From Henricia sp. BOLD:AAB3569 (Eukaryota; Echinodermata; Asteroidea; Spinulosida; Echinasteridae), in contig JBBELK010000308.1 of the NCBI GenBank assembly GCA_037783545.1, positions 744,001 through 808,000 on the forward strand: a DNA stretch of 64,000 bases, written 5' to 3'. The notes below the pieces were generated by a model, which ran no database searches, was not told the DNA's origin, and saw only the letters and a list, made by a program, of their open reading frames with translations. The position numbers and the translations under genes were made by a program. This document shows positions 5,795 to 64,000 of this stretch, piece after piece. Position 1 is the first letter of the stretch; every line of letters starts with the position of its first letter.

Positions 5795-8700
5795 CTCATT
5801 TCCATAAAGGTCCTCGTCGAGCCCGATGTCATTGTTTTCCGGTCCGTTCTTGATTGGATGGTTTTGTGTCGGGACTGCTGCCCCCGCTGCTGCTGCCTGC
5901 GCCTGTAGCAATACGAACATAGGGTAAAGGCCTTGCGCATCAAGTAGTGCGTGCTAAGTTAAAGATGTTTTGTCCGTGCATTTGGGTGTGGCACCTCAAA
6001 TTTTTTTTTTAAAAGTTTGAATTGATATTAAAAGTTATTCGCTTTCAAATGAGACAACAAAATAAGAATTGATCAATGTTGAACAATAACTGTCAATATT
6101 TTGAATTTTTGTCAATCCGCCAATAAATCCACTTACAGCAAGACGTACACTTACCCAAGTCTGACTTCCCGTGTTTGGTTTGTAATGCGCAGCATACATC
6201 GTGCCCTCTGGACTGGTGGCCTGTCTAATCTCCTTTCTTCTGTCTCAGAAAGTCTTATGAGACCGAGACAGAAAAAAAGACATTAGACATGCCACCAGTC
6301 CAGAGGGCATGCTGTACGCCGCGCATTACAGACCAAACACGGGAAGTCAGACTTGGGCAAGTCTACATGTAGGCAAGGCGCAAAAACGGGAATATAAAAA
6401 CAGCTTTTTCACAGGGTTGCTGATGTCTAAAATACAAAGTATGATGTTTTGTCGTTAAAATAAAGTAAATGCTTAAAAAATTAGTTCGGAGAAAACAAAA
6501 AATGAATTTACTGAGAACCACGGACTGTGTGTCTTTAAAGACTATCGAATAGCTGCCATCTTGTGGGGCAGTTTCTTTGTTCCATGAGGACATGCATGGT
6601 TGCACATTTTATGCGTGCAATGTCGACCAATTTAAATGACAAAAGTTGCCCTACAAGATGGCAACTATTTGATACAGTCTATAGTGGCCACCTAAGAGGA
6701 ATCCGAATCGATTCCAAAAGCATAGAAAAATCATCCAAGCCTGGAGGGAAGTATGCTACAAAATTCAATGCTGGCCCAGGCTGTGCGAGACGTGAACACA
6801 ACGTCGTCCATCTTGACACAGGCACAACAATGTTTTTCCTAGACTGATCGAGTTAGCATTAGAGGCGTTCGAGAAGCATAGCGGGGTGTTATGGCCTAGC
6901 GGTCTAGTGCGTCGAACTCAAGTTCCTGCGCCAGTACTAGAATGTGGGTTCGATTCCGGGCCGTGACGGGTTGTGGCACTTGTGCTCTTGAGCAAGACAC
7001 TTAATCAAACTTGTTCTGTCCTTCGGAAGGGATGTAAAGCCGTTGGTCCAGTGTGTTACATGTAACGCACTTTAAAGATCCCAGAGCATTCTTTCGTGAA
7101 GAGCAAGGGGAGGATTCCCCGGTGTCTCTGGCCGTGTCTAATTCAACTTAGAAGTTGATAGTTATTCGAATATCTATATGTTAATTGATCCCATTCCTGT
7201 AATTGGCGGTCCTTCCGCTGTTGGATGTGGTGAATAAATAAATAAAAATAAATTAAACAATTAAATAAAATACACTGTGTAACACCAACTTACACAGGAG
7301 CATTCTTTTTGCCATCAAGTGATACACGAAATCTGCCCCGGTGGCAGCCACTACTACCCGAGCTTGCGGCAGGGTCTCTGGTGGAAGGCTCGGTGTAAAG
7401 ACGTCACCTAGTAACCGTGTGGAAGTTGCGAGTACGTAGCAAAACATGGTGAACAGTTTGGAATCGCGACGCGAGTACGAAGAAAAACACAGATTTATGA
7501 CACAAATAGAAGGGAATAGGGGTGTAAATACATTTCGCTTATTATCAGTAGATGTCCGTGGGCATTGACAAAGTTTATTACGGTACTTTTAGCAAAGCTG
7601 CCAACCCTCCCGTATTTTACAAAAATTAATTCCTGGCAAATTACCTATCCTGGGACTCCTATCACAGATACAAACCCTCCTGGATTGTCAATTAACAACC
7701 TCAGAGATTTTTAGATGTGTCGGAAGTCGGAAGATCAGCCTATTTTCCAGGTTTCTGCTCCAAAATACGGGAAGTTGGCAGCTGGGTCTTTCTATAAATT
7801 AGGGGTCCAATTTTTGTATCCCCCGTTACATTTTACATCTTGTTTTTGTAAATTCAGGACACATTCTTTAAATACTTTCCATCTCATAGAGTACATAAAG
7901 TACAATTCAAAAAAAATAGTTTACAGGCCATTTTAATGATTTTTGTACGAAAAATAACACATGTCAGGTGTAACGGGGGACACTAAATGTCACACTTTTG
8001 GACCCCTAATTTATAGAAAGATCCAGCTATGCTTTAAGACAACTATTTTCATGCGGCACAGGCTTACATTATCCTGACGAGTCAAACAATCAGTGTTTAT
8101 AAAAACCCCGCTTGGCAACAACCTTTGACTTGTGTTCCTAGAATTCAAACTGAAACCCCGTGTTGTTCGTTTTGCATCTTCTAGGTACTTCCACCGGTGT
8201 AAACCAGGGTTTACTTTTAGAAGGCTAAAAGTGTTGTTTTGGACGTTTATATTGGGATGTTATCATTTTCTATATAACACTTTTAGCCCCTTAACATTTT
8301 AACCCCCTTCGTCGTGTGGAACATTCTTACACGCCCTCAAGAGGCCAAATACCCATGTGTAAATTCTGACCGTAAATTCCAAATCAGACATTTAAAAGCT
8401 CACCATGGTGGTCCTTGTAATCTCAAGACTTCTGTACCCTTGTCGTTCATTGTCCATGATGACTCAAACATCAAAAAAGGATAACAGGGAGCAAAATTAT
8501 GAGTAAAATCGAAAATTTTCAGCAAGCATGGTACCACAGACTTCGTGCTCTAGCATTGTCTAGCCGCGTCAAAAGGAAAATAGTTCCGCCAACGCGAATA
8601 AATTCTGTTGACCGTAGCACCTCAGCTGAAAATGTAGATCACGGCTTTACACGTTGCCCCTATAGAGCGCCCTCTACACCAAGTTTAGAATATCCTCAAG

Positions 8701-11700
8701 ACCAACGTTCGCCTTGATGTTTGTACATGTACTTTTATTTTAATATAACAGCCGTCGGTACGGTATACCCTTTCACTTTGGGGTACGGAACGTACGAGTG
8801 GAGTCCAGATTAAACACGGCTGACGAAAATGATAACGTCCCAATATAAACGTCCAAAACAACACTTTTAGCCTTCTAGAAGTAACCAGGGTTGCAGTCGA
8901 GTCCATTAGAAGTCCATCACAAGTTTAGAACGGATATAATCACAAGTCCTGCACAAGTCCTGCACAAGTCCAGTAACAAGAAGCAAAGGATGAACACGCA
9001 CAAAAGAATGCCTTTGTTGGAGTTCATCTGAATAGCTTGTGACTTGAATTAAAGGAGCATGACCAGAGTTTCTGGAAAATAGTTTTCGATGTAACTTACC
9101 AATATTATCAAGTAACTCCCATACACACCTCCCATGTCCCAAAAACCCGAAAACATTCGCGATTTCCAGTAAAAAATTGAACAAAACTATTGAGTCGGCT
9201 TTCAGTGGATAAACGTTGATACTGGAAAATTAGTTTACAAATAATCGGTGGATTTTCGACGATATCCTCGGAAATATGCGGCCTAGAAGCGCGGGAGTTT
9301 CAGTTTCGTAATCAGAAAAATATAACGGATGTTATGATATAAAAATCTCATGACCCATAAGGTAAGTCCCGGGGAGTTATGGGTAAAAAAAGGTGATCTG
9401 GTCACACTCCTTTAAGACCCAGGGACTTGTGGAAGACTTGTGAGGACTTGTGAAGGACTTGTGATGGACTCGACTACAACCCCGGTGTAAACCCAGTGTA
9501 ATTCGGTGTAAGCATCTAAAACACTCCTATTACCTGTGCTTGTTGTCTTGAGGCTTCTGCTTGTGACGTTAGCTCTGGGGCAGCAGCTGGGACGAGCTGG
9601 GGTACAGGGTCAGCAAATGGGGCGTCAATTTGGGGCTGCGGGGGTGGTTGGGCTTTGGTCTGGGCCATCAGGAGGTCCGGCTGGCCAGCGGAAGAGTTCT
9701 GAATGGAAGCTGTAATAACAAGTTATCCAAAGTTGTCAACATTTTCACAGTTGTACAAAGCGTGGGAAGTGGGGGACGGGTCAAAGGCAGCGTACATGTA
9801 GGACTTTACATGCACTGCATTATTTCGGGGGAGAAAGAGGCCAGGGAGGTAAAGCGCAGAGTGCATTGCCCTTGCAACTTGAAGCAATTGTTGCTTTCAG
9901 TTGCTGTCAATGTGCGCGCACGTGATCAGATGCACGCGAGCAACTGGCAGCAACTAGTTGCAAATGCGCATACATCGACGCAACTGACTGCAACTGGGTA
10001 CAACTAGTTGCCAGAAGGTAGAACATGAACAACCCGCGGCAACTGGGAATTGTCCAGTTGCCAGTAGTTGAAAGTGCGCGTACATCAACCTTTTTAATAA
10101 GCAACTGAAGTTGCTCCCAGTTGCCGCGAGTTGCTTCGAGTTGCCGGAAACACCAGTTGCCACTAGTGCAATGTCGATGTACGCTAGGTTTTAGAGTTGG
10201 ATGATTTGTCGATTCCATTTTTTTTCTTTCTTCAAAACCTTGTTAAATGAACATGGATGTACACACGGAAAAGGTACCGAACAAGTATTTAAAGACATAA
10301 ATATTCACAAATGCAAAGAGAGAATTTCTTCGGAAACTTTCTTTAGAACAGATGTGTTCTTCATGTTGTGAGATTCCGCCAAAAGTAAACATGCGACCAA
10401 GGCAGTCTAAATGAATATTTAAATTAGATTTTGAATACTTGAATAGTAAATGAACTCACTGACTTACCAATAGCAAATGAAGCCCATGGAGAGGGGCTGG
10501 CTTCAACACCCGGTGCCGGCACCTGGTGACCCAGCTCAGGGGGAGGGGGCGTGGCTTCCTCAAACCCTCCAAACTCACCCCAGTCATCGTCCAATCCTGC
10601 AGCGGCTCCCTGCAAGTGTGCAATGTTAAGAATTTGAGGTGAGTTAAAGGGGCCAGGTCACAGTTTGCGCATGCGCCAAATCCTTTACATTTTTGACATA
10701 CGTGTGCGCGTAGAAGAATGTAGTGCAATTTAGTTACACAATGCCATTGGTTCGTGTGCATAAATGTACATCGTGTACTTAGCACGTGCTGCATGGGCAG
10801 TATACAGTGTTCATGACTGTTTACAATACGCAGAATTCAACTACATAGTACACCGTGTTGCGCGCCTTCATTTGATCGCGCGCTCTCGGTGTCTGGAAAA
10901 AATCGGTACAGCGGCAGCAGCCACGGTCTCTTTCCATCGACAGAAGATGTGATGTAAAATTGCTGTCGGGACCAAATAAGCATACAGTTTTGGTGGAAAT
11001 CAAGGTTGAACAGATTGCTGCATCCAACCATCAGACCATGTTCATGATGTTATTCATATCATTCGATGTCGTTTCTGTCATGCTTTGTCTGGTTTTTTGA
11101 TGGGATGAAAATACGGTATTTTTTTCATATACATTGAACACGGATTTGGGTAAATTTATATGTTGGAATCGATAGCTTATTCAATTCTAAGATGTACTTT
11201 CCACTGACACTTCCGTCGCAAATGTTGCATTTCTGAGATAAATAAATGATAAAATTACTGCATAAAGTAATGAACAAAATGACGTGCGAGCGGTCTGTGC
11301 GTAAGCGCGACCACAGAGGGCGCTGCGCGCGCGCGTGAATGGTTATCTTGTGCACTAACTGAAGGCAATTTTTGAGAAAGAAAACATGTTTTTTTCTACA
11401 GAAAAGCAACATTTGCGACAAAAGTGCAAGTGGGAAGTATATCTTAAAATTACATTATGTGTTGATTCCAGGAGGTAATTTCCTTAAAATCTTTGTTCAA
11501 TGTATACGAAAAAAATACCGAAAATACTCCATGCCAACCCATTCACAAGGTATCACCTCTGATTGCGAGTCAGTTACCCAAACTATTCGGCCACGGTACC
11601 TGGCCGTGAAGAATGTTTACAAATGTGGGAATTTTTTTCCGTTCAGTTTGAACATGGATTTTATATATTGGACATTATTATTATTATTATTATTTATTCA

Positions 11701-11865: not shown

Positions 11866-12130
11866 CGCTGCAACTATTGCCGTCTAAGACCCGAGGAAAA
11901 CGTCTGACGCAATCAAAACTGATCCCAACGATCCTACAAGATAGCATAAAACGGGGAGCAGAGGCACTTCTGCTTAGAAACGAGAAGACAAGCAGTGAAT
12001 TTTAGTTTTAAAACGACATTCTTCCGTCTACAAAAAGCCGCTGGAGGCAGCCATTTTGGATATGATTGTATGTGTGTGTGTGTGGATCAAAAGTTAACTC
12101 CAGTAATGAAAGTCAAGTGGGTCCAATTAA

Positions 12131-12460
12131 AGGAACACACCGGCTTTGTTGGGCTATTTTAGGCTCGAAATAGACCACATGCTGAAGGTCTTAAATATAA
12201 GAAACCACAAAATTTGGCCGTTTTTGAGCATTTAAAAAAAAAAAGTCGCCGTGAGGATCGCGCGATAGTGACAGCTGGTAAAGCGTATAACCCGACTATT
12301 GACCATTATTGTTAATTTTATCATGGTGATTTTATTAAGCTTTTTCAGTTAATAACGGGACATTTTGATGATCTTTTTTCACAATTAAGGACCATCAAAA
12401 GATTATTGTCAAGGATATGCTACATCACTAAATTAAGTAAACAGTTAGCCGGTGCTTCCT
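12131..12460. mobile_element. TTAA-flanked MITE, family A copy 2 (short)
   Basis: Starts AGGAACACACCGGCTTTG and ends GCCGGTGCTTCCT, flanked by TTAA (12127-12130, 12461-12464). It is an internal-deletion relative of 1062-2095. Confidence 0.85.
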
Positions 12461-12477
12461 TTAATTATCATAAATCC

Positions 12478-13495: not shown

Positions 13496-13506
13496 TCAAT
13501 AGGTGC

Positions 13507-19254: not shown

Positions 19255-22200
19255 ATGGACACCAACGTTACCACAGACTCCATTCCAGAGTTCTTCCGGG
19301 ACAAGAGCGTCTTGATCACCGGAGCTACTGGCTTCATCGGCAAGGTGCTGGTTGAGAAGCTCCTACGATCATGCCCTGATCTCAAGCACATCTACCTATT
19401 GGTCAGGCCCAAGGCTGGACAGACGGCAGCCGAGAGACTTCAGGCAATGACCGAGACCAAGGCAAGTTGGCTTGGGCAAAGACTGGGTATTTTTTTAGTT
19501 TATGTCCCAACTCGAATTTAATGAAAATAACTATTGGAATCGATAGCTTGGACGATTTTAGAATACCTTTTCCATTGGCATTTCCGTCGCAAATGTTGCG
19601 TTTCCATGAAAATTGTGTTTTTGTCGCGGCCCGCCTCCATACAAAAGTGTGTGAAACTGCAGTGCGTGAAGCGCGCGAAGAAAGAGGGCGTGCGCGTGAT
19701 GATCAGTTTGGTTTCTGGCCGGCCGCTTTGCGTTCAATCATATGCAATATTTTTCCCGTGATTTTTCTCAAACGAAACATTTGCGACAGAAATGCATGTA
19801 AGTATTCCTATTCTAAAATCCTCCAAGCTATTGATTCCAATAATAATTTTCCTTAAATTCGAGTTGGGACATAAACTAAAAAAATACCAAAGACTGGGCA
19901 GTGAGGAGACTTCGTAGGTACAATACCATGCATTCGCACCCAGGATTTTCCTTATGACAATGCAAAATTAGGAGGGAAAAGTGTCATGAATTTACTAAGG
20001 AAAAACTTGAGTTGTCATTGGTTTAGTAGGCACTTTCATCACGTGACCGAAAGTGCCTCGGTTTAGCGCTTGGGGTCTCGGAGGGTGTCCGTGCATGGTA
20101 ATCTTGCCAGTTATGGTACATTAACTCACTGGCTTCCTTTATTGTTCATGTCATCTGGTTTTATTGCTCGCAGTTGTTTGACAAGATCCGGGACGTCCCG
20201 AACCTCCTGGAGAAGCTGGTGAGCATAGAGGGCGACATTCAGGATCCCAATCTCGGTCTGTCGGAGCAAGACGTTGCACGTCTGCAGGAAGAAGTGCACA
20301 TTGTGTACCATAGCGCTGCCACCGTACGATTTGACGAGAAACTAGGGTGAGTGTTGCGATTTCAGTGAGTGGTTTAGATTGAAATTGCCATAGAGGGCTA
20401 CACTCAGAAATCCAACCTGTCTGTTGGCGCAAGACGAGGCCCGTCTGCAGGAAGAGGTGCACATTGTGTACCATAGCGCTGCCACCTTACGATTTGACGA
20501 GAAACTAGGGTGAGTGTTGCGATTTCAGTGAGTGGTTTAGATTGAAATCGCCATAGAGGGCTACACTCAGAAATCCAACCTGTCTGTTGGCGCAAGACGA
20601 GGCCCGTCTGCAGGAAGAGGTGCACATTGTGTACCATAGCGCTGCCACCGTACGATTTGACGAGAAACTAGGGTGAGTGTTGCGATTTCAGTGAGTGGTT
20701 TAGATTGAAATTGCCATAGAGGGCTACACTCAGAAATCCAACCTGTCTGTTGGCGCAAGACGAGGCCCGTCTGCAGGAAGAGGTGCACATTGTGTACCAT
20801 AGCGCTGCCACCGTACGATTTGACGAGAAACTAGGGTGAGTGTTGCGATTTCAGTGAGTGGTTTAGATTGAAATCGCCATAGAGGGCTACACTCAGAAAT
20901 CCAACCTGTCTGTTGGCGCAAGACGAGGCCCGTCTGCAGGAAGAGGTGCACATTGTGTACCATAGCGCTGCCACCTTACGATTTGACAAACAAATTAGGG
21001 TGTGTTGCAATTAGCGCTGGAAGTTACCGTTTATTTTTCTAAACATTTAAACGTCAATTTAACGTACGTTTAAACAAATAGTAAACATAACAAAAAGTGA
21101 AACTTATTACCGCGCTCGCAATATAAAGTTCTTTGACCTGGTATCATGTGCGTTCGCGCGGCACCACTGACACTTTATTGAACTGGAGCATACATGATGC
21201 AGGCCACGGAAGTTCAGCTAGGCTTTGCTGTAATAGGATACTTTCGAGAAGTCACTCAAACCCAAAGTCAGCAACCAATGAGAGAATGGAATCAATAACA
21301 GTTCCAACACAACTACGATCGTCGGCTCCACAGTGTTTACCGCCCTGCTATTTGAATTCAACTTGCAAGATGAAACCAAAAAAATCAGTACAATCGCTTC
21401 CGCCCACAAACGCAACTAGAACTGTTCATCTTCGGCTTGAAACCACAAAGGTTACTGACCGTTGGGCTCAACACAGCGGTATGCTGCCTGATTCTTTCAA
21501 AACAAAACTGCCTCTTTAGAAATTTCTGGCAGCGCAAAACGGCCATTAGATCTTTGAAAAAGGAGGATCGTTTTTTCACAAGTTGGTTTCGGATATCCGT
21601 TTAGCATTTTTCTAAACGGATAGTTACATTTCGGATGTTAAACGTTTACACGGTCGCAGCACTAGTTTACAATTCAGGAATAGAGGGCGCTCTTGTCTTG
21701 CCACAAAACAAAGTGGAGCAGTTGCAGGTGCATATGTACCAGTTGTCACCATGCGATTTAATGAGATCCTAGTTGAGAGCAGTTCAGTTTGTTTCTGCGG
21801 GATCTGGAATCGGATCTGTCATGAAACATACACGCCCTTACATCCACTGCCACAATCAAGAAAGCATTGATTGTGGCTGTGGACGTGAGACGACTTGATG
21901 CATGCGCAAAACTTCAACATTGATGTCATCATGCGACAATTCAAAAATCCATAATTTGAAATTTCTTTTTTTGAAGTTTTTTTTCCTATCTTTGCAGTAT
22001 TTCATTAAAACTCAATGTGGGTTCAGTCCAAAAGATGATACAGCTATGCAGAGGAATGAAGAAGCTTGAGGTAAACGGACCCTTTTACTCGCCCTGTTTG
22101 TCACTTTAAAGGGACACACCGGCTTACTGTTTACATAATGTAGCAATCTAGCATCCTTGACAATAATATTTCGATGGTCGTTGTGAAAAAAATATCAAAA

Positions 22201-46238: not shown

Positions 46239-46253
46239 CTGTTCCTTGCTCTA

Positions 46254-49900: not shown

Positions 49901-52900
49901 GACATCTGAAAGGAATTATTGACTTACTTTTCAAATGTACCCCATTACTGTGGACAGACCCATATGCATGAGCAAAGTGGTGATGTCACATTAGGAAAAC
50001 ACAGGAAAATCTCATTCAACTTTGCACAAAAGTTTCCACAATTTTCTCCAACTTGCTGAAACTTTTGTAACCCATGACGGTTTAGGTTTGTTTTACATGT
50101 TGCCTGTTGTAAACCATGAGAAAACTAAGGCTGGAAACTGCAGCATTTTTCCACAATTCCAGTTTGAAGTCTTATGTTTTTTCTTTGCTTTTCTGCTGTG
50201 TGTTCCTAAAATGACATGCCCCAAACAGCGCCCTCTTATAGTGAGTTTATGTCAAGAAATTTTTAAAGTTGAAAAATGCCACTTTTTATTCATGGGGCAT
50301 CAAAATGAACCGTAGTATTGTCTTTCTAGACAAGTAATCCTTCATATACAGTAAATACTGTGCATAAAGTTATTGAGCATTTCAGGGGCCCTTTAAACAC
50401 CCAAAGTTTGATTTTTATTTGTTTTTCTCTCCTGTAGTGTTTGCCTATGGTGCCACGGGGGCAGGCAAGACCTTCACCATGCTTGGTGCACCTGACTGCC
50501 CAGGGGTTATCTTCCTCACTATGGTGGATCTCTACCGACGCATCGGAGAGATTGCACAGGACAAGCTGTGTGACGTAGCTGTGTCTTATCTCGAGGTAGG
50601 TTACGGTTTGGAGATGCACTGTTGAATCAAATGACTGTCGCTTTGGGAAAAAGAGACAATTTTTATTGGGATTTGTTTTTCATCTTGAAAGTGACAGAAG
50701 CACCTTTATTTAATATGAGGAAATTTCAACTGCATTTGTACAACATTTTTGTGAAACGCATATTTGTGAAACAGTTGGCTCTCTGCTTTTAATAAGCAAA
50801 AATTATGAGAATTCAATTGGCACATCTCTATGGTTGGAAAGCTGTCGTTACATGTAGCCTTTCCTCCAACTAAAGGCAAGACCAAAAAGGGCACCATCTT
50901 TATATTAAGGCAGTTATTAGGGCACCATAGGATTCTATATATTTTCTGTCTGCCCAAGGACACTCAAACTGCTAAAAAACAGATAATTTCCAGCCAATTA
51001 AGACTCGCATCTTCAGGCCGGTTAAGTGGGCAAATGCGAGTGTGAAAACAAATCTGACTTAAAGATAGTATACATGATTGGTAAACTGTTACAAATAGTT
51101 TTATCCCCCTGTGTGATTGAAGATATGCATGATTAAAACCAACCTGAGCAAAAACCAGCTCCGTACTTCGTCTAACTTTTGAGAAAAAAGTCAAAAAAGG
51201 GTTTGCAGTCATTTTGCCCCCCAAACCACTTCGCCCTGAACCACGGCCTGTGTACGAAGTGGTTTTGGGGCGAAGTAGCATTAGGGCGATGTAGTGTTTG
51301 GACGAAGTGAATTGGGGCGAAATGGCACTCAGGCTAAGTGGTTTGGGGGCGAAATGGCACGAATTGAATTTTCGTCTCATGAGACGAAAAATAATTGTTT
51401 TGCTAATTTCTCAAAGACTATTGCACTTCAGACAAAACCATTTTTGGGGGGAAGTTTTCTACAGTCATCATGTTTATATTGTGTAAGTTAGGCGTAAATC
51501 TGTGAATATTCCTGATTTTCGAGATACCAATCATGTATACTACCTTTAAAAATGTCTGACAGGTATATGTTGCCAGTAAGCCACTGGCAATGTTAGCTTT
51601 CCAGCCGGATGTAGACATTTCTAAAGCCGCGCTGAGAGCAGTGCCCTGTGGCAGAACAGTTAAAATACAATTGACTTTTTGTGTGTGTGTTTAGGTTTAC
51701 AATGAGAACATCCGTGATCTCCTGGCTCCCTCCGGCTTGTTAGCCCTTCGAGAGGACCCACAACAAGGTGTCGTCGTCAGCGGTCTCACGCTACATAAGG
51801 TATACACAGCTTTAGCACAATTTTGTTTCATATGGAAAATAGAGAGCTAGACAACTTAAGAATCATATATAGGGCCATTTCACGGTAAGGCCAAACAAAA
51901 TAAATGGTGTGTTTACGGTAACCCGACCTACTTGGAATTTGAGGCCAAATTGCCGACCTCAAACGTTTTATTGCCAATTTTCATGATTTTCAAGTTCATA
52001 ATTTTAAATGAGCACTATTTGCAATAATTTCCAACGAACATACCATTTTCTACACTTGTACATGAACACATATACTTGTAAACAACGTACACTGAGGACT
52101 ACGTGTACAACACCGAGGACGTAGTTTGCGACCGCGTGCTTATATAGCCAGCCTCAGTAAAACGAATTGCGTAATAGCCCCAAATACAATTGCCACACCA
52201 TAATAAGGCCCAAATGCCTCTGCTTAAAATGATTTATTGCCAAAACTTAGATAAATAAGAATACCAAAGTCGTCCCCTGAATACAAACTGGGGAAAAAAC
52301 ACCTTTTTGCCCTGATTTTATTTCAAATGTGATTGTCCATAGGATGGTTATTTAAAATGCATCATTTTGATGAACCTGACATAATTGTTTGACAGAGGGT
52401 TGGTAAAGTGGAGAACGGTTGTCTCGGTCGACCGAGAAGGAGGATAAACCAATTTATTCAAAAATAAGCCCGGGCAGACGCCATCAAACGGAATAAAAAT
52501 GAAATATTTGATATTTTATCAATTTGAAAGCTGGGAAGAGTTTATTATTCTGGCCATATTGACAAAGCGATCCGTCGTCATTGTCTTATCCAACGGTTTA
52601 CCGCCGAACTGAAATAGTATAAATATAATATATATCTTATTAGTTTCTGGGGGTCAACCGTTGCAGTCTCGTCGAATGGGGGCGCTTTTAAATACAATAA
52701 TCACATGTATTTGCCAAACAAAACATACTACAGGCCTGGAATACAAACAAATAAATAAATAAATATTTTTCTTGTAAATTGCGGTAATGAAATGAGGAAA
52801 TAAATACGAAATGAAACACAAGAGAAACGAAATATGTTCAACTGTCTGGACGGTCGACCCTTGTCGAAAGACCAGTGAACATATATACCTTTCTACCCTT

Positions 52901-55900
52901 GGCAGAATGCCAAGCAATTAACATTGTAAGTACATGTGTTCTACACCTGTTGATGAATACAGGGAACCGGGGGCGCGTTCAATAGCGCAATACGTATGCA
53001 TACCGTACCGACAATACCTTCAACTTCAAAGATATAGGAAAATACCCATTACTGGCATACCTATTGCGCTATTGAACACGCCCCATGACAATGCAATACA
53101 AATATGTGCGTGGGGAAGTTTTTTTTCTACAAAGGTCAACAGTATCCTAGCTGTAGCCGTCAGTTGCAGAATCGGCATCACAGTGAAAAACACCATAACA
53201 GGGACGGATCTAGGAATTATTTTCAAGGGAGGAGGTGTTCTGCCACTGCGAGTGCCGACAAAATTGTGGGGCGAGGGTTACCATTAATATTTATATCGGC
53301 ATGTTGCCGACACTGGCGGACTCGCAGAACATGTATTACATTTAAAATTTAGCCAGAGCAGGGGGAGCGGTGTTTGACCACGCCTCCCCCCCCCGCCCCC
53401 CCCCCCTACCCCCCCATTTCAATGTTGTTCGGAGTTGCGTCCGCCGCGGCGAGTCCCAGGCCCAACATTGAAATGGGGGTGGGGGGGGGGGGGGGTCGAG
53501 AGGGTCGAGATTGGCTCATTAAGTTCAGTAATTTTCGGCAAAGAAGCGAGGATGGTATTTATGATAAATATGAAAGGCCCGCCTCCCACCCATACATGTA
53601 ACACTGTGTAGTTAAAACATACTTGCCATTTCTGTAGTAATCACAAACCGAGGACGAGCTCGGTTTGCAGGCCGTCCTCGGTTTGTGTGAGTGTATTCAC
53701 ATACAAGACCTCGATTCGCATCTTAGACAAGTCCATGTTTAATAGTGTTAATAGTGAGTTTCAAACATTGCAAAACAACACGCAAATGCATGAACTGAAA
53801 TGTAAAAAAAAATGACAAAATAAAATTATTTTCCTACCTACCTACCTGGATTTTTTAAGGCCGTTACCGTAAACGCACCATTTGTTTTGTTTGGCCTAAT
53901 TGCGACATGGGTTTAATAAGAAATAATTTCAATATTGTGTGATGACCACCAAAACCTATAGACCGTTATCACGATGCGGCTATCTTCCCTTTTCTCCTAT
54001 TAAAATGAACTTAACCAAAGCGAGGCTTGCAGAAAAAAATTGTTTGGTCCCGTTTTGAAATTGTTGATTGTGTGCATCACAATGGCACACGCGTTGCGTG
54101 ATCAAGAAAACGTGCAGCATGGACAGTGCTACTCGGGAGATTATACGCGCTAGTGCACGTTCACGCAGACGCACTGATCGTACCTGACATGTACTATCGG
54201 GAATATTTATAAGACAAAGATGGACACACCGTAATAAAGGTCAGTAACTCTCAGATAATCAAGGTTTTGTGCTTGTGTGATTTCTTAGCATAGCAATCTT
54301 GTCTGCATACTTATATGCAAATGTCGTGATATACAATAGAAATGTGACTGACATTTGTCCCGTCCATAAAAAATTCTCTCTCCCGTTCGTAATTAGGGAT
54401 TAAAAGTGGGTTTGAAAGGTCTTAAACATACATTTAAAACCGGATAGGGGCCTGGACGCTGAGGCCAATGAAATTAGATTACTAGTTTCTCGTCAACGAT
54501 TTATCAAATTTTGGTGAGGGATTTTTTTCATTATTCATTATTCATTATTTAATCAAGGAAAAATACAACCTTTACACGTACGCGAACTGCCATTTAGAAA
54601 CTGATTATTAAGTCTCTAAACTCGCCCAGAAATGGTTTGGTGCCAGTATCAATTCCATTGAGTTATACCGGGTAGCTTGTGTTTGAAGGAGCAAGTTGAG
54701 ATGACAAAATCATGGGAAATGACAAAGGTGATGTCTGGCTATAAACACAAAAGGTGCAAAACACAGATCGCGATTGCACAACTGAAATGGAAACGTTTCG
54801 AATGGGAGTAGTTTGCATCTGATTTTCCCCTTTTTTTGAAAAATAATGAAATTTTGGCCTAATGAAATATTTTGGTGCGGGGTCAAAATCACATGCGGGC
54901 GCTGACGAGAAACTAGTAATCTAATTTCATTGGCCTGATAATGGCCCAAGCCAAAGGCTTCAACTTATGCTAAACATAGTTATTTTTATTTTATTTTGTT
55001 GCCCTACTTGCAGCCCCGTAGTGCAGAAGAGTTACTTCGCATGTTGGAGTTTGGCAACAGCAAACGTACTCAGCACCCGACAGATGCCAATGCACAGTCC
55101 TCAAGATCTCATGCTGTCTTCCAGGTGAATAGGGAGTTTTATATTGTGTGATCGTTTGGTGAGACGATTCATACAATGAGCGTAGAAATGACTCGCAATA
55201 GTCGGTATTTGTGGGGCTTGACTTGGTCTTGACTTTTGGCCAATCATGTTTGCCTTTTTAAAAAATAATCCCGGCGTCAAACTTATTAAAAATGATGTTT
55301 AAAGGCAGTATACATGATTGGTATCTCGAAAAACAGAAATGTTCACAGATTTACGCCCAACTTACACAATATAAACATGATGACCGTAGAAAACGTCCCC
55401 TGAAATGGTTTTGTCTGAAGTGCTATAGTCTTTGAGAAATGAGTAAAACAGTTAGTTTTCGTCTCATGAGACGAAAATTCAATTCGCCCCAAAACCATTT
55501 CGCCCAAATGCTATTTCGCCCCCAAACCACTTCGCCCGAGTGCCATTTCACCCCAAATCACTTCGTCCAAACACTACATCGCCCAAATGCTACTGCACCC
55601 CAAAACCACTTCGTGCACAGGCTGTGGTTCAGGGCGAAATGGTTTTGGGGCGAAATGACTGCAAACTCTTTTTTGACTGTTTTCTCAAAAGTTAGATGAA
55701 GTACGGAGCTGGTTTTTGCTCAGGTTGGTTTTAATCATGCATATCTTCAATCACACAGGGGGATAAAACTATTTGTAACAGTTTACCAATCATGTATACT
55801 ATCTTTAAGTGTAATTTGGAAAATATGTTATCCAAAGCAGATGCCCAGTGGTAAAATATTATTTTTCGATTTGCACTGAAAGTTGCATACTGTATATTGA

Positions 55901-58900
55901 TATGAAAGATGCATACAGTTTTACCAACTGTTAAATACCATTTTTTATGATTTGGTGATGATTGATAAAATTAAAAATATCCTTGAACAATTTGGGCAAA
56001 TATTATGGTGTTCTTTTTGTCGTTGACCTTCAGGTTTTTGTGCGGCAGAAAGACAGGACGGCCAACATCAGCACCAATTTCCGAATCGCCAAGATGTCGC
56101 TGATTGACCTGGCAGGGTCGGAGCGGGCCACCGTCACAACCAACAGGGGCGCGAGGTTCCGTGAGGGGGCGAACATCAACCGTTCACTACTGGCACTAGG
56201 GAACTGCATTAATGCGCTCGCAGACAATAAAAAGGTAGAAAAACAGTTAAAAGAGCGTGTCTAGATCAAAATTGACCACCCATTTTTCCCACGGGTGTTG
56301 AGATTTTGATACCGTATTATTTGTCATAGGTTTATCATTACCATTCTGAAATTTCGTGTTCTCAATCCGTATATGGGTAATTCCCAAAATTAGGGGTCCA
56401 AAAGTGTGACACGCTTTTTAAGATTTCCAAGTGTTTTTAATGACTGAAAGTGGTTTCCCAGTAGAAAATAATTATTTTTATTTGTACAAATGCCACTCAA
56501 ATTTAATGTTTGTGTGTAGATATGGCACCAAGGTTAATGCAAACTCATTGTACAGCCAATTTTCATTGGCGTAGGTAACCCAGGACACCAAACTCCTATT
56601 CAATACCATGGAACAAATTATAAGCCTTTATGGTCTTTTGTTTTGAATATTTTTCAGGAATCAGAAAACAAAATATTGAAGAAAATGATGCTGCCCCCTA
56701 TAATCACAGGCCACAGTCCATTATTGAGAATTTGTGGTCATAAGTGGTGATTTTTGAAGCAGAGAGTGTCGTACGTAACTGGGACACCAAAGATTTTGGA
56801 CCCCTAATTTTGGGAATTACCCATATTTTCAAGGATTACGTCAACAAAATCACAGATGTTTTGTAAACTAATTTATCCGGTTCCATAAAGCAGAGCAGTT
56901 AATTACACCAACCTTTTTGCTTCCACATCCAAATTGGAGATTGCAAATTTCCTGTTTTCTTCCCATGGATAGTATTTTGGGGTGGTATTTTGGGGTGGTA
57001 TTTTATATGATTATTAGGTTAGAACGAAATTCATCTCTGGAAAAATCTGAATAATCCTTTCACTTTTCTTTACTTATATCTTTGTACAGAGCAAAGGTCA
57101 TATTCCATACCGCAACAGCAAACTGACTCGACTGTTGAAGGATTCACTCGGGGGAAACTGCCAGACGGTTATGATCGCCGCTATTAGTCCGTCCAGTCTG
57201 ACGTACGAGGATACACTAAACACGCTCAAGTACGCCAGCCGGGCCAAGAATATACGAACCTCGGTGAGTATATAGCGTATAGAAATACCAACTAAGGGCC
57301 TGGGCTCAGTGTCCACCCTGTAATGTGGGATATTCCTGGCGCTGTTGCCATTATTACCGCTGCCATCGGGGAATCACGAGAACAATTTTGCTTCAACTAG
57401 GTGGCTGCCTGGCCAAGGCACACAACCCTATCAGCACTTAGATTGTGGCATTCACCCTACATGGTACTCCTGGTGCTGTTGCCATTATTATCGCTGCCAT
57501 CATGGAATCACCAGAACCATTCCACTTAAACAAGGTGGCTACCTGGCCAAGGCGCACAACCCTATCAGCAGTTAGATTGTGGCATTCCCCCTACAGGGTA
57601 CGCCTGGTGCTGTTGCCATTATTACCACTGCCATCAGGAAATCACGAGAACCATTTCACTTCAACTAGGTGGCTGCCTGGCCAAGGCGCACAACCCTATC
57701 AGCAGTTAGATTGTGGCGTTCCCCCTACATGGGAACTCCTAGTGCTGTTGCCATTATTACCGCTGCCATCAGGGAATCACCAGAACCATTTCACTTCAAC
57801 TAGGTGGCTGCCTGGCCAAGGCACACAACCCTATCAGCAGTTATATTGTGGCATTCCCCCTACAGGGTACTCCTGGCATTGTTGCCATTATTACCGCTGC
57901 CATCAGGGAATCACCAGAACCATTTCACTTCAACTAGGTGGCTGCCTGGCCAAGGCACACAACCCTATCAGCAGTTAGATTGTGGCATTCCCCCTACAGG
58001 GTACTCCTGGCACTGTTGCCATTATTACCGCTGCCATCAGGGAATCACCAGAACCATTTCACTCCAACTAGGTGGCTGCCTGACCAAGGCACACAACCCT
58101 ATCAGCAGTTAGATTATGGCATTCCCCCTAACAGGGTACTCCTGGTGCTGTTGCCATTATTACCGCTGCCATCAGGGAATCACCAGAACCATTTCACTTC
58201 AACTAGGTGGCTGCCTGGCCAAGGCACACAACCCTATCAGCAGTTAGATTGTGGCATTCCTCCTACAGGGTACTCCTGGCGCTGTTGCCATTATTACCGC
58301 TGCCATCAGGGAATCACCAGAACCATTTCACTTCAACTAGGTGGCTGCCTGGCCAAGGCGCACAACCCTATCAGCAGTTAGATTGTGGCATTCCCCCTAC
58401 AGGGTACTCCTGGCACATGTTGCCATTATTACCGCTGCCATCAGGGAATCACCAGAACCATTTCGCTTCAACTAGGTGGCTGCCTGGCCAAGGCGCACAA
58501 CCCTATCAGCACTTAGATTGTGGCATTCCCCATACCAAAGCATTAATTGTTGTTTCTTTCACTATTAACAGCTGAAACAGAATGTCGTCAACGTGGACCT
58601 GCACATCAGCCGCTATACAAAGATTGTGGAGGAATTAAGAACCGAGGTAAATTTTATTTTAAAAAAGCCTGTTCAGATTTTTCGTTTGAACCTAACAATC
58701 ATATAAAATACTGCCTCAGAATACTATCCATGGAACAAAAATGGGAAATTTGCTATCTCAAAATTGGATGTGGAAGCAAAAAGGTTGGTGTAATTACTGC
58801 ACTGATTTATGGAACCGGATAAATTAGTTTACTAAACATTTGTGGCATTTTGACAATATGTTGGCCTTTCTATTTATATGATATGAGTGGCTTGCGACAG

Positions 58901-61900
58901 GCTTGCAATGCATAGTTCCGACCTGTCAATCAAGCCGAACCCGTCGACCAATCACAACAGAGCTAGCAGACAGCGCCCACATAGGTCAAAGTGCATTGCC
59001 TCACAAACAACATCACGATTTTCTGCCCATACGTTGTATGCGGTGTTTCGGGTAAATTTTTGGTTTCAAGGCCGGGCAATTCACTGTTCAAAGGTAAGAA
59101 AGCGAATTGTTATGAATATATGACATCTCTGTATCACTGGCCTTTTACTTGGTGTGTGCTACGGTAATTGTCGACCCTGAAACATGAATACCTTTGAGTT
59201 TTCTCCAATGAATCTGTGCTTTCCGTTGAAAGTCCCATTGGTTTGTGCAGTGTGTGTAGCCATTTTGACGATAGCGTGTGAGGCATAGCAACTGCTCTTG
59301 TGATATTCACATTGTTGTCATTATTTAAACGGCTTCTTCATTTATCTTTTAAGGTGTCAGAATTGAAGATCAAACTTCAGAACTACGAATCGGGCAGTGT
59401 AGTAATGCCAATGGCTCCATCGTGTGATAACAGTGACGACAGAATTCATAGGTAAGTGTTAAAGACAGATTACATGATTGGAAAACTTCTAAGAACAGGA
59501 ACAACAGCATTACATAACTAAAGAATGTTGATAAACTGCCTTGTAGAAATTTCAGCCACATAGATGCTGTAATACTTCAAAAAACCTGAAAAATCCATGC
59601 ATGGTTTTTGTGATAAATGAATGAGTAGCATGCTTTGAGTTTTAGCGTGTCCTCGGGAAACGCACTTAGTATTTTAGTAGTGCATACCGCGCCGTGAATG
59701 GGCAAAATTACTTGCACGTAAACAAAATAAAATATGTTTGCAAACAATTTTTTAAAGATCCTTCAGTTGGCAATTTGTCCACAAAGGTACCATTTTAAAA
59801 GGGGAAGAATTTCTGGTGGCGTTTGCTACCATTGCTATCAACACTTTTAGTCGGATTTTTCTTGTCAACTGATGAAGTAAAATTTTGGGTCAGGCCTAAC
59901 AAAATAAATGGTGTGTTTACGGTAACCCGACCTACATGTACCTAGAATTTTTGAGGCCAAATTGCCGACCTCAAACTTTTTATTGCCAATTTTCAAGTTG
60001 ATAATTTTAAATGAGCACTATTTGCAATATTTTCCAACGAACATAACATTTTCTACACTTGTACATGAACATGGTTAATAGTGTTAATAGTGAGTTTCGA
60101 ACATTGCAAAACAACACGCAAATGCATGAACTGAAATGTTTTAAAAAATGACAAAATAAAATAATTTTCCTACCTGGATTTTGTTTAGGACGTTACCGTA
60201 AACGCACCATTTATTTTGTTTGGGTCACTGCAAATGATGTAGGTGGGCTTTTATAAACGTCCTTTTTTACATTTGCCCTTTAGGTTGCAAGCAGAACTCC
60301 ACAAGGTTTTTGCCCAACGCTGTAGCAAAAGGAAAGAGCTGCTTGAGCTAGAATCATCCGACAGGCACCTTACGATCCTAATCAGCCGCAAACAGTCAAT
60401 GGCCGAACGAATACGACTGGTGTATGGAGGCTCCACACAGGGTGACAAGGTACAGTGACACGTCACTATATAATGTTATAACACGCCTCTTTGTGGTTCT
60501 CAATCCTAACTGGCTGAAACGCAGTCACATGAGGTTCACTAATCTAGGCTAGTGCATGAAATTTGCGCCAGCGTGAACTAGACGCCCGTATCAAGTTTCG
60601 GGCGCGAGCGTTAAGACTTCACGCGCGCATGATTCCCTGCTAGTGTTCCTGACCGGTCACTAGTCTCAAAAACTAGTGACCGGTTACTGCGCCCTCTGGA
60701 GGTTGCTTGTTAATGTATTAAATTTAATTCCATCTTAAATTTAATTCCATGTGTGTATTTTTGCCTGAGGCGTGTTATAAAACACATATGGACTGGCATA
60801 ATTCGGTCTCAAGTGCACGTCTATGTGCCCCTCGTGACTGTGAGTGACCACAAGAGGGTCCTATTTCCCCTCGGGGCCCATAGACTTGCACTAGTGACCT
60901 CATTGCCAGTCCATATGTGTATAATAGTCACAAGTGTACTAGATTTCTATCCCATCATGCGCAGCGTGCAGTGAATTGTGGGGGAACCGTAACGGCACGT
61001 ATTCTTATAATATTTCATGGCCAAATTAAGTGGCCTTCTTTTTCTTTAGACCTAAGCTTTCTGTCATGTGGAGCACTATGGCGGATCGGTCTAGTGGATC
61101 GTATTCAAAACCTGGGTGAGTTGTTGTGGGTTCGAATCCCGGTCCGGCCCATCCATGGTGCGTGTACCCTTGAGCAAGGTACTTTGTCACGCATAATTGC
61201 TTCTCTCCACCCATGGGTAAAATGCATGGGTACCTGGTGCTTGCAGTAGGGAAGGAAACTGCAGACCCGGCCGAGCAGTAGTCGGCTCTATCGCCGGGTA
61301 GCCTATAAAAAAAAATGCAGGCTTACAAGCCAAGAAGTTGAAAGATGACCGTCCGCAGCAAAGCGCGGAAACCGCGCGTGCCCATCCTTTCCTTTTTTTC
61401 TGTCACGAACACCATTATTAACTTTAAAAACTTCTTTTTAAATGTTTTCTCTCCTTGTACAGACAATGGGCCGGTTTGAGCGGCATATCGCAGCCTCCGT
61501 AGCGCGCCAGACGCGGCTACGAGAGCGTAAACCGGCTGTAGAAGACCGGATTAAGACGAACCAGGAGTGGCTCGACAGGGTCAAAGGTCAGATTGAGGTC
61601 GAATGGGGTCAGGACCAGATTCCAATGGTAATTAAATCAGTCATTTCGCATTTGCTTATGAAACTTATTTTTCCCAAATTCTTGGACCAGTATGATATTG
61701 TAGAGTGCCAATCGAAAGTAATACATTTATTGACAATAGGGCTGTGCATTTTCGAATAATTGACTATTCCAAATTTAATTTAAAATCTTTTTAAAATCAA
61801 TCCCAATCCCAATTCCATTATATAAACTCATGTATTGTATTCAGGTTCTTCAGGAGAGCGTACGATCGAGACACCTCGAGGTTGAATTGAAGGACTGCCG

Positions 61901-64000
61901 ACGTCAGATTAAACACCTCAAGAGGTTTGCTAGACAGCAAGATAATCATCAGCAGAGCTCGGAGAGGTAAAATACGCAGCATTGCTAAGCTGTCTGAGTT
62001 TCCCTTTACTTTTTTGTTTTGTTTGTTTCCGTAAATCAACCTTTTAAGTAGTCTGCAAGCGTTTACTCTAGTCCACGTTATTTCACTTGAGACATTTTAC
62101 TGGACCCCTTCAGGTAATTAGTTGATTAACCACTTCGCGACGGCTAGGCATTTTTCAATTTATTCCCCTGGAGCGGGAGACTGCACTAGCAGTTTTGGTT
62201 ATGCAGTATACATGTATGTCTCTGGGGCTGGAGACTTGTTGACTAGTTTTTATTTCAAGTCGTAAATCAATCTTATTTCCCAAGTCCAGTCACAAGTCAT
62301 TTTCTCCAGAGTTAAGTCACAGGTCAAAAACCCAAAACTGACTTGACCCCAAACCAACAAGATAAGAGACCAGCTCTGCCCTGGGGTCGATTTCACAAAG
62401 ATTTACGACGCGTCGCAAATACCAAATCCATCGCAACTCCCCAATCCCATGGCAAAATTACAAAGGGTTCGGCGACTTGCGATGGGTATGGTACTTTTCT
62501 TTGTGAAATCGACCCCTGGTCTAATTCATGGGCTAATTCTGTATAACCGCCCCCAAGACACTCACACTTAGAACTGCATATGCATTTCCCTGTTGCGAAG
62601 TGGTTAAAGTTCTTTGAACAAATAAAAAACAATATGGTTTTTTTTCTAAAGATGCTCAGACTTTTAGCAAGCTTTTTTTTTTTTTTTTTTTTTTTAACTA
62701 CTACGTGTCAAAAAAAAAAACTGTCCTACTTTTAATCTTGAATAACCTTGTCATTTTTCAACTTATTTAAACGAAAATTTCACATCATGTAAACAAGACC
62801 TGACAAATTTAATGGAGTGAGTTTCATCAGTTTTGTCCAAAAGGGTGAGATTTAATGGCCATACGAAGAAAAAAAAGACACCTAAATTTCAGAATTTGCC
62901 ATTTTCGACTTGGCATCTGCCATTTTCAAGTAAACTGTCTACATGTATGTCCAAGGTCCCTTTGCACCTCCTAATGAAATGCTTGAAGCAATCAAGATGG
63001 TTTGCAATAACATTTGGAGTGATCCTGCCTTTCTTCATAAGCTTTCTGACTGCATGCAGCACACATTCCACCACCGTCTCCAGCGATGTAATGACATTGA
63101 AGGAGGCGAAGTCGAAAGTGGCGAATTCTGAAATTGACTTTTTTTTTCGTATGACCATTAAATATCACCCTCTTGGACAAAACTGATGAAACTCACTCAG
63201 TAAAATTTGTCAAGCTTTGTTTAAATCCGTTGGAAAATGACAAGGTTGTTCAAGATTAAAAGTAGGACAGGTTTTTCAGACACGTACGTAGTATAAGGGT
63301 TTATTTTTGCCCTACCCGGTATAACTTGATTAGCACTGTATACCCCGAGACACATAGCATGCTTCATAGCGTGCTTGGTTGGGACTCGAACCCACGACCA
63401 TGGTTGTAATCAAGTTTTGTCAGACACTGCTCTTGGCATGAGGGTTGCGCTCATGTGTGTTGAATCATAGGTGTTGTGGTTCAGGCCACGAATCGCTTTG
63501 AAAATATAGGGTGGAAATAAGTGGGTTTATTATACATCAATGATTTATTATACATCAATAAGTGCAAATCTAATGAAGAAACCAAAATTTGGAGGGGAAA
63601 AAATATGAAGAATTTATTAGGAAAAACTTTCTGAGTTGTCCCATAGCCTTAGTGCATGAGGGCTTATGTGACGTCCGACTTGTAAATTCTTTCCAATAAG
63701 TGGTTATTTAATGAGCAAATTTGCCGACATGATAATACTTTCTGGGGCTTCTTCTTTGCATTTTAGAGCTAGTCTAAAAACCACGTCACATCGCACCTCT
63801 GGTCTTATACCCCTTGTCCGATATAACAGGTTAATCACGAGTCTCCTAACGACAGTCCGTAAACAGTTCTACCTGCTGAAAGGCTCGGGATTGGCCACTT
63901 CGGACGTGATGACAGACTTTGAGGCAATCCAGAAACAAGTTGAAGGTGACCGGGAGGTCGCGTGGGCCGACCAGAGCGTGTCGGAGGTCGCAGAGGTCAA
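46969..64000 (+). CDS. KIF18A: KIF18A-like kinesin-8 motor, 13 coding exons, 3' end beyond window
   Basis: Exons: 46969-47172, 48199-48385, 50438-50595, 51695-51799, 55014-55124, 56034-56234, 57090-57263, 58572-58646, 59354-59451, 60284-60449, 61463-61627, 61845-61966, 63767-64000+. All junctions keep frame; 666 aa are visible. Function (family): plus-end-directed kinesin-8 that accumulates at kinetochore microtubule ends, dampens their dynamics and aligns chromosomes. Seen: [14 protein letters not shown]-binding GATGAGKT at 135-142, SSRSH at 247-251, DLAGSE at 280-285, [20 protein letters not shown], then neck and coiled-coil segments. [20 protein letters not shown] and [13 protein letters not shown] match kinesin-8, not kinesin-1. 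The chosen ATG is the first in frame after an in-frame TTG/CAT stretch; a spliced 5' UTR is likely. Resemblance to human KIF18A extends past the motor; KIF18B is less likely, supported by METTL15 next door. Confidence 0.93.
47262..47365 (+). pseudogene. Fragment of a repeated coding-like sequence (TPNVIA..LDCF)
   Basis: The segment can be translated as VETVVES, then [12 protein letters not shown]. The minus strand of 62889-63158 translates as LETVVE, then [12 protein letters not shown]. Across the shared TPNVIA/LDCF codons four third-position changes are silent. It sits 90 bp inside KIF18A intron 1 and has no start, so it is probably the remnant of a mobile or captured coding sequence of unknown identity. 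Confidence 0.4.
47355..47735. mobile_element. Inverted arrays of CAACTCGACC / GGTCGAGTTGG
   Basis: About seven CAACTCGAC units at the left (47370-47477) face about five GGTCGAGTTGG units at the right (47625-47702). Outer CAAAGGGAC blocks occur at both ends (47350 and 47726). The units resemble the ACTCGGCC units at 32672-32863. Confidence 0.75.
47888..48145. mobile_element. Foldback, arms about 110 bp, before KIF18A exon 2
   Basis: GGTAGAATAAGTCGTGCAGG / CCTGCGTGACTTATTCTACC-type ends. Inner arms share CGACCATAAG and CACAATGGAAATTCC. It ends about 50 bp before the exon 2 acceptor at 48198. Confidence 0.8.
48418..48550. mobile_element. 130-bp palindromic MITE, copy 4 (reverse)
   Basis: Carries GTGCAACCATGCATGTCCTC, the complement of the core in 6545-6684, plus inverted TCGAATAGCTGC and GGCAGCTCTTCGA ends. 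Confidence 0.75.
48575..48965. mobile_element. Interspersed repeat shared, inverted, with 59485-59880
   Basis: ACAAGAAAAACCTGACTAAA, AATGGTACCTTTG and ATCTATGTGGCTGAAA blocks recur in reverse complement at 59485-59880. Both copies are in introns of the KIF18A-like gene, so they could pair in its pre-mRNA. Confidence 0.7.
49010..49352 (-). mobile_element. tRNA-derived SINE, reversed, in KIF18A intron 2
   Basis: On the minus strand: GTACCGTGGCCGAGTGC A-box region, GGGTTCGATATCC B box, then TTGAGCAAGGCACT, AAGGGATGTAAAGC and AAAGATCCCAGAGC. Same family as 6884-7265. Confidence 0.85.
49380..50392. mobile_element. TTAA-flanked MITE, family B copy 3, carrying a nested element
   Basis: AGGGCCCCTGAAATG and CATTTCAGGGGCCCT ends lie between TTAA sites (49376-49379, 50393-50396). 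The interior matches 29150-29732, except for the 438-bp insert at 49525-49962. Confidence 0.9.
49525..49962. mobile_element. TA-flanked Tc1/mariner-like MITE nested in family B
   Basis: Ends TGGGTCTGTCCACAGTAATG and CATTACTGTGGACAGACCCA are perfect inverted repeats with TA on each side. Joining the flanks at one TA restores TTACATATGCA, as in the complement of uninterrupted family B sequence near 29569-29588. Confidence 0.9.
51063..51545. mobile_element. TTAA-flanked family C element, intact copy
   Basis: AGATAGTATACATGATTGGT and CCAATCATGTATACTACCT ends lie between TTAA sites (51059-51062, 51546-51549). The middle is a degenerate array of GGGCGAAGTGG / GGGGCGAAATGG units ending in TCTCATGAGACGAAAA. 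It ends in KIF18A intron 3, 150 bp before exon 4. Confidence 0.88.
52968..53093. mobile_element. Palindromic MITE, copy 2
   Basis: GGGGGCGCGTTCAATAGCGC at the left is mirrored by GCGCTATTGAACACGCCCC at the right. Same family as 12478-12592. Confidence 0.8.
53382..53495. repeat. C-rich run, CG-rich loop, G-rich run hairpin
   Basis: Polycytosine (53388-53417) and polyguanine (53475-53494) runs flank inverted CCCATTTCAATGTTG / CAACATTGAAATGGG. It is prone to cruciform or G-quadruplex formation and to assembly error. Confidence 0.8.
53945..55013. other. Remainder of KIF18A intron 4
   Basis: GAAATTAGATTACTAGTTTC (54467 onward) and its complement near 54910-54930 bound a further inverted-repeat element of about 470 bp. 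The rest is unique AT-rich sequence. Confidence 0.5.
55303..55804. mobile_element. TTAA-flanked family C element, intact, reversed copy
   Basis: AGGCAGTATACATGATTGG and CCAATCATGTATACTATCT ends lie between TTAA sites (55299-55302, 55805-55808). The core is the reverse complement of that at 51063-51545: CCACTTCGCCC and CCATTTCGCCC units. Confidence 0.9.
56265..57040. mobile_element. GTGTTGAGATTTTGATACC repeat, interrupted, in KIF18A intron 6
   Basis: Matches 35766-36400 in FAR intron 12 on both sides of the insert at 56374-56823. The right part (ACCAACCTTTTTGCTTCCAC and TTCCCATGGATAGTATTTTG) recurs inverted at 58656-58835. Confidence 0.75.
56374..56823. mobile_element. TA-flanked Tc1/mariner-like MITE, nested
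   Basis: Ends TGGGTAATTCCCAAAATTAG and CTAATTTTGGGAATTACCCA with TA on each side (56372-56373, 56824-56825). Removing it with one TA gives CCGTATATTTTCAAG, against CCGTATACTTTCAAG in the uninterrupted host copy near 35875. Confidence 0.9.
57322..58532. repeat. Satellite-like array, 134-bp unit x about 9, filling KIF18A intron 7
   Basis: Nine units share TTGCCATTATTACCGCTGCC, AACTAGGTGGCTGCCTGGCC and CACAACCCTATCAGCA. The array begins about 60 bp after the exon 7 donor and ends about 40 bp before the exon 8 acceptor. Units are about 90% or more alike by eye. Long open frames across it reflect the period (134 mod 3 = 2) and are not genes. Confidence 0.95.
59893..60225. mobile_element. MITE short form of the 51883-53905 element
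   Basis: ACAAAATAAATGGTGTGTTT and AACGCACCATTTATTTTGT ends; the body contains TTGAGGCCAAATTGCCGACC, as in the long form. It is 60 bp before KIF18A exon 10. Confidence 0.85.
61068..61330 (+). mobile_element. tRNA-derived SINE in KIF18A intron 10
   Basis: A-box region TGGCGGATCGGTCTAGTGG, perfect B box GGTTCGAATCC (61129-61139), CCCTTGAGCAAGGTACTTTG, GGTACCTGG and an A9 run near 61307. Confidence 0.8.
62105..62608. mobile_element. Repeat with CCACTTCGCGAC / GTTGCGAAGTGG ends, carrying a nested MITE
   Basis: The outer inverted ends enclose a copy of the 25080-25373 sequence. It is interrupted at about 62385-62520 by a MITE whose ends read GGGGTCGATTTCACAAAGAT and CTTTGTGAAATCGACCCC. The uninterrupted copy at 25280-25320 lacks that MITE. 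Confidence 0.8.
62695..63290. mobile_element. Large foldback enclosing a coding-like core
   Basis: AAAAGTAGGACAG-type ends are mirrored (ACTGTCCTACTTTTAATCTT at 62721 against AAGATTAAAAGTAGGACAG at 63253). Arms of about 200 bp surround 62940-63090, whose minus strand can be read as [18 protein letters not shown] followed by [17 protein letters not shown]. The core resembles 47262-47365. It lies in KIF18A intron 12. Confidence 0.75.
63335..63480 (-). mobile_element. Possible SINE head fragment
   Basis: On the minus strand, CATGGTCGTGGGTTCGAGTC resembles the tRNA-like head of the SINEs above, but the expected body does not follow clearly. Confidence 0.35.

What the first reader, a model, noticed from the sequence alone, without database searches (positions are those of the whole stretch)
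5795..64000. CCDC91-like, FAR, METTL15 and KIF18A linked in 60 kb: a pre-duplication version of the vertebrate 11p/12p region
Seen: four genes in the order CCDC91-like(-), FAR(+), METTL15(-), KIF18A(+). Established: human METTL15 and KIF18A are head-to-head on 11p14; CCDC91 and FAR2 are close neighbours on 12p11; FAR1 is on 11p15; 11p and 12p carry other paralogue pairs such as BMAL1/BMAL2. Inference: the ancestor had one linked block that split after whole-genome duplication, with reciprocal loss leaving KIF18A/METTL15 on one copy and CCDC91 on the other. It would be an unusually compact microsynteny across deuterostomes.
Basis: partly seen in the sequence, partly recalled or inferred. Interest (0 to 1): 0.75.

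Follow-up and report, generated by a model that had tools for sequence, protein, structure and literature searches.

The report
Unduplicated starfish neighbour-gene cluster
A starfish chromosome carries side by side five genes whose human relatives lie scattered over two duplicated regions of chromosomes 11 and 12, which fits a pre-duplication arrangement, although the genes themselves are ordinary.

Summary
FAR(+), METTL15(-) and KIF18A(+) are confirmed by Pfam and solved structures. CCDC91(-) is confirmed by coiled-coil and C-terminal exons that lie left of the window; its in-window exons rest on a motif and splice borders. The source is a starfish: echinoderm mitochondrial code, 16S/ND2/ND1 inverted (asteroid gene order recalled).

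New here: the next gene recognised to the right is liprin-beta (PPFIBP), whose human copies lie in the same two regions. CCDC91-FAR-METTL15-KIF18A-PPFIBP spans about 137 kb. By identity, FAR splits before human FAR1/FAR2 (52%, 46%, against 59% between them). This supports a pre-duplication segment.

Not shown: that the tight cluster is ancestral. Human order differs beyond METTL15-KIF18A; no other animal genome could be searched; recalled BMAL, LIN7, ERGIC2 and STK38L queries found nothing within 100 kb each side; a second FAR-family match exists elsewhere; whole-genome linkage searches did not complete. The reading is partly supported: a new example of a known kind.

The parts
10468..10609 (-). 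CCDC91 exon A with motif DDDWGEFGGFE and PSPWASF
   Evidence: AG/GT borders; resemblance to the human CCDC91 N-terminus recalled; no tblastn or Pfam match
9534..9709 (-). CCDC91 exon B (by position)
   Evidence: AG/GT borders, phase continuous with exon A
5795..5902 (-). CCDC91 exon C (by position); further exons lie left of the window, to coordinate -15831 (C308 about 728.17 kb)
   Evidence: AG/GT borders; left-hand exons by tblastn
19264..36593 (+). FAR (fatty acyl-CoA reductase), 12 coding exons modelled
   Evidence: tblastn; spliced model; Pfam
40350..43669 (-). METTL15 (mitochondrial 12S rRNA N4-methylcytidine methyltransferase), four exons found; 5' end not located
46969..64000 (+). KIF18A (kinesin-8), continues past the window end
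2674..3489 (+). C1q-like collagen gene on the other strand, between CCDC91 exon C and the left-hand CCDC91 exons; not part of the linkage argument
   Evidence: ORF; Pfam C1q E 6.6e-28

Best explanation
This is an ordinary, unduplicated segment of a starfish chromosome. It descends from the same ancestral linkage group that vertebrate genome duplications turned into the human 11p/12p paralogous regions. In the ancestor CCDC91, FAR, METTL15, KIF18A and liprin-beta sat on one chromosome. In vertebrates FAR and liprin-beta kept a copy on both descendants, CCDC91 survived only on the 12p copy and KIF18A-METTL15 only on the 11p copy. Shown here: gene families, order and strands, the echinoderm source, FAR's pre-duplication position by identity, and liprin-beta as fifth neighbour. 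From papers or recall: human locations. Inferred: descent of the linkage and reciprocal loss. The products do their usual separate jobs (recalled): trans-Golgi adaptor accessory, fatty alcohol synthesis, mitochondrial rRNA methylation, mitotic kinesin, liprin scaffold.
For: Gene families. FAR identities 52/46/59%. Echinoderm/starfish mitochondrion. Human neighbourhoods, passages only: KIF18A next to METT5D1 on 11p14 (PMC5322952); STK38L, ARNTL2, PPFIBP1, REP15, FAR2, ERGIC2 listed along 12p11 (PMC10415337); PPFIBP1 with CRY1 on chromosome 12, PPFIBP2 and BTBD10 with CRY2 on chromosome 11, as paralogons (PMC4558521).
Against: Human and starfish orders differ beyond the METTL15-KIF18A pair. Four of five further queries from those human regions (LIN7C, BMAL1, ERGIC2, STK38L; recalled) found nothing in C308:644001-908000; only liprin-beta did. 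A second FAR-family match over the cut-off lies on C219 (E 4.2e-7), so single copy is not established. KIF18A was not compared with KIF18B. Positions of CCDC91, FAR1 and PPFIBP2 on their arms are recalled. No second invertebrate was examined and no tree was built.
Confidence: 0.78

Rival explanations
1. The genes share an ancestral chromosome, but the tight five-gene cluster was assembled in the starfish lineage by shuffling within that chromosome; it says nothing about ancestral neighbourhood. (Compatible with the linkage-group part of the best explanation.)
For: Local order decays while macrosynteny holds: PMC11175523 reports no apparent microsynteny conservation between two hemichordates (legend passage), and PMC7269912 speaks of extensive internal gene order rearrangement (passage). 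Human 12p order differs from starfish order.
Against: Five consecutive recognised genes with human relatives in the two paralogous regions; METTL15-KIF18A kept as neighbours.
Confidence: 0.45
2. The linkage is coincidence: unrelated genes happen to be neighbours, and the match to 11p/12p is selective reading.
For: Both human arms are large targets; FAR1, PPFIBP2 and KIF18A are far apart on 11p (recalled). Other flanking genes (a rhodopsin-type receptor, an MFS-like gene, C1q genes) were not tied to 11p/12p, and four of five extra queries were negative.
Confidence: 0.08
3. The CCDC91 call is wrong, or the in-window exons belong to another gene (for example aftiphilin, which has a similar motif by recall).
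For: Exons A-C are short and low-complexity, with no tblastn match to CCDC91 at E up to 10 and no Pfam hit; the join to the left-hand exons is untested.
Against: Same-strand exons to the left match the CCDC91 coiled coil and C-terminus, 51% over 33 residues, E 8e-6, so a CCDC91 gene is at this place in any case.
Confidence: 0.05

Closest known systems
Human 11p15-p14 / 12p11 paralogon (CRY2-PPFIBP2-BTBD10 with CRY1-PPFIBP1; FAR1/FAR2, BMAL1/BMAL2)
   Same: Contains relatives of all five genes, two of them on both sides (FAR1, PPFIBP2 arm positions and CCDC91 recalled)
   Different: Duplicated, dispersed over megabases, different order; here within about 137 kb
Deuterostome/chordate ancestral linkage groups (Simakov et al. 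2020, PMC7269912; hemichordate assemblies 2024, PMC11175523)
   Same: Conserved same-chromosome linkage across deuterostomes
   Different: They treat whole chromosomes; only passages were seen, and KIF18A and liprin do not occur in the main text of PMC11175523
KIF18A-METTL15 neighbour pair of human 11p14
   Same: Same adjacency (PMC5322952 passage); divergent orientation here (human strands recalled), at most about 3.3 kb between coding parts found
   Different: 5' end of starfish METTL15 not located, so a shared promoter is not shown

Membership tests
Pre-duplication segment of the 11p/12p paralogon | Genes belong to the same families as the human genes | tested here: met
   KIF18A versus KIF18B not separated
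Pre-duplication segment of the 11p/12p paralogon | Orthology shown by gene trees | not tested
   No tree was built; only FAR pairwise identities
Pre-duplication segment of the 11p/12p paralogon | Single copy, splitting before the vertebrate duplicates | tested here: inconclusive
   FAR identities 52/46/59% fit, but the genome search, whose counts are lower bounds, shows another NAD_binding_4 match over the cut-off on C219, E 4.2e-7 with stops. Not tested for the other genes
Pre-duplication segment of the 11p/12p paralogon | Species is an outgroup to the vertebrate duplications | tested here: met
   Mitochondrial code 9 and 16S, ND2, ND1 opposite to 12S and COX1; ND names by eye, asteroid order recalled
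Pre-duplication segment of the 11p/12p paralogon | Further 11p/12p genes linked on the same scaffold | tested here: inconclusive
   Liprin-beta yes; BMAL1, LIN7C, ERGIC2, STK38L no match within 100 kb each side of the window; rest of the 3.72-Mb contig not searched, as the tool did not complete
Ancestral microsynteny block | Same close neighbours in at least one further independent lineage | not testable with these tools
   No other animal genome is held; human order only from paper passages and recall
Ancestral microsynteny block | Conserved gene order and orientation | tested here: inconclusive
   METTL15-KIF18A adjacency kept; CCDC91-FAR-PPFIBP differs from human 12p (CCDC91 place and strands recalled)

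The most novel reading that the evidence does not exclude
The five-gene cluster CCDC91-FAR-METTL15-KIF18A-PPFIBP is an ancient bilaterian or deuterostome microsynteny block held together by selection (for example shared promoters or regulatory elements inside neighbours), and vertebrate duplication allowed it to come apart by complementary loss.
Probability: 0.2. Interest if true: 0.55.

Novelty: new member of a known kind. Interest (0 to 1): 0.35.

Why it matters
If confirmed in other outgroups, it gives a clear local example of reciprocal gene loss after vertebrate genome duplication, and a compact anchor tying human 11p14-15 to 12p11. It does not change what is known about any of the genes.

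Tried and rejected
Rejected: that CCDC91 is only a motif look-alike (left-hand exons). Rejected: that the four copies after FAR exon 2 are alternative exons. The 163-bp copies at 20389-21000 lack the exon's 5' part and acceptor, carry a 2-base deletion, and read upstream in the exon's downstream frame they meet a TAG (by hand).

Tried without result: literature for this synteny. Ten paper searches, the whole cap; no listing showed a paper naming this cluster (one search listed 10 of 19 papers). A codon-usage scan of the flanks led to liprin-beta, a receptor and a transporter-like gene; in the left flank I recognised, by eye, nothing conserved besides CCDC91 and C1q. Pfam was run on six flank pieces: one receptor over the cut-off, two MFS_1 matches below it, three without a hit.

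Whole-genome searches did not complete: PF14598 (meant for BMAL), PF16017 (BTBD10; 27, 67, 74, 77, 80, 83, 85, 93, 96), PF07970 (ERGIC; 28, 71), PF08409 (TMTC; 29, 97). What these accessions stand for is recalled. One search was unanswered too; its repeat was answered.

Full report
What is there. The window is C308:744001-808000 of an unnamed 740.7-Mb assembly. tblastn with recalled human proteins over C308:644001-908000 finds, in order, CCDC91(-), FAR(+), METTL15(-), KIF18A(+). A junction search gave spliced models for FAR (12 exons), METTL15 (4) and the KIF18A motor part (8). It accepted only GT-AG, in-phase, stop-free joins, so that the joined frames are open is partly by construction. The FAR 1-2 join fits badly there; a GC-AG donor right after ETK would fit human better, a judgement by eye. 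Pfam confirms FAR, METTL15 and the kinesin; solved structures confirm KIF18A and METTL15.

CCDC91. The identification rests on same-strand exons left of the window: tblastn E 1.5e-8, 5e-7, 1e-5 and 8e-6. Coiled-coil matches are weak evidence alone; the C-terminal 33-residue match at 51% is the better one. The in-window exons A-C were not matched by the CCDC91 query at E up to 10, and the joined protein has no Pfam hit. They are assigned by strand, position, the motif DDDWGEFGGFE (resemblance to human CCDC91 recalled), and AG/GT borders with agreeing A-B-C phases.

What organism. On the 16,221-bp mitochondrial contig, COX1 codon AAA aligns to bovine N at 9 of 11 sites, TGA to W at 13 of 13, AGA to S or A at 5 of 5, ATA to I at 13 of 26; the one AGG aligns to G. 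This is code 9, echinoderm (or hemichordate). 16S (Rfam), ND2 and ND1 (named by eye) and several tRNAs lie opposite to 12S and COX1, the asteroid arrangement as I recall it. So: most likely a starfish.

The fifth gene. A codon-usage scan of the flanks turned up liprin-beta on the + strand, confirmed by PDB Liprin-beta-1, E 6.5e-65, and tblastn with both halves, window coordinates 78213-120995. I recognised no other conserved gene between KIF18A and it. From CCDC91's last match to liprin-beta's last match is 136.8 kb. Human PPFIBP1 lies on 12p11 with ARNTL2 and FAR2 (PMC10415337, passages) and near PTHLH (PMC8085669, passage). PPFIBP2 is linked with BTBD10 and CRY2 on chromosome 11, and PPFIBP1 with CRY1 on chromosome 12, in paralogous regions (PMC4558521, passages). 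KIF18A and METT5D1 (METTL15) are listed next to each other on 11p14 apart from a microRNA (PMC5322952, passage). CCDC91 on 12p11 beside FAR2, FAR1 on 11p15 and PPFIBP2 on 11p15 are recalled; CCDC91 has no occurrence in PMC10415337 or PMC8085669.

Pre-duplication test. Starfish FAR is 52% identical to FAR1, 46% to FAR2, and these are 59% identical to each other (recalled human sequences). That fits one gene before the vertebrate split, though it is not a tree. The FAR family search gave four matches: three exons of this gene and one on C219, E 4.2e-7, over the cut-off, with four stops read through. That search's counts are lower bounds, so FAR's single-copy status is open.

Limits. No other animal genome is held. 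Linkage in one starfish plus human cannot separate an ancestral cluster from local reshuffling of genes on one ancestral chromosome. The literature warns about the latter: macrosynteny holds in deuterostomes, while two hemichordates show no apparent microsynteny conservation (PMC11175523, passages; PMC7269912, passages). Order on human 12p differs from the starfish order. Recalled LIN7C, BMAL1 (part), ERGIC2 and STK38L queries gave no match at E up to 0.05 in C308:644001-908000: four of five extra queries negative, liprin-beta the one positive. LGR4 and the BDNF region were not searched.

Verdict. Observation confirmed and extended by one gene. The pre-duplication reading is likely as far as shared linkage goes. 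The claim of unusually compact ancient microsynteny is open. Interest is modest: a new example of a known kind.

Noticed in passing
20389-21000: Four tandem 163-bp copies of the last 124 bases of FAR exon 2 plus its donor lie in the following intron, 85-89% identical to the exon, with a 2-base deletion; they look like dead exon copies.
   Followed up: yes
41819-41877: A 60-column match to METTL15 exon 3, 83% identical, lies just downstream in the intron: a second exon-fragment copy in the same window.
   Followed up: partly
2674-3489 and window coordinates -3902 to -2695: Two C1q-like collagen genes on the + strand lie between CCDC91 exon C and the left-hand CCDC91 exons; Pfam was run on the first only, the second is by resemblance.
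   Followed up: partly
57334-58535: 134-bp tandem repeat, 8.9 copies, in a KIF18A intron.
   Followed up: no
G000:C955: Three equal-scoring COX1 places spaced exactly 16,221 bases, the length of the mitochondrial contig C2104: a head-to-tail mitochondrial concatemer, probably an assembly artefact.
   Followed up: no
L022 9304-10000 (C308 about 887.3-888.5 kb): Rhodopsin-type receptor in a 403-codon open frame, right of liprin-beta; its first 232 residues match Pfam 7tm_1, E 8.4e-33.
   Followed up: partly
G000:C219:3375587-3376117: A second FAR-family (NAD_binding_4) match, E 4.2e-7 with four stops read through: possibly another FAR-like gene or a relic.
   Followed up: no
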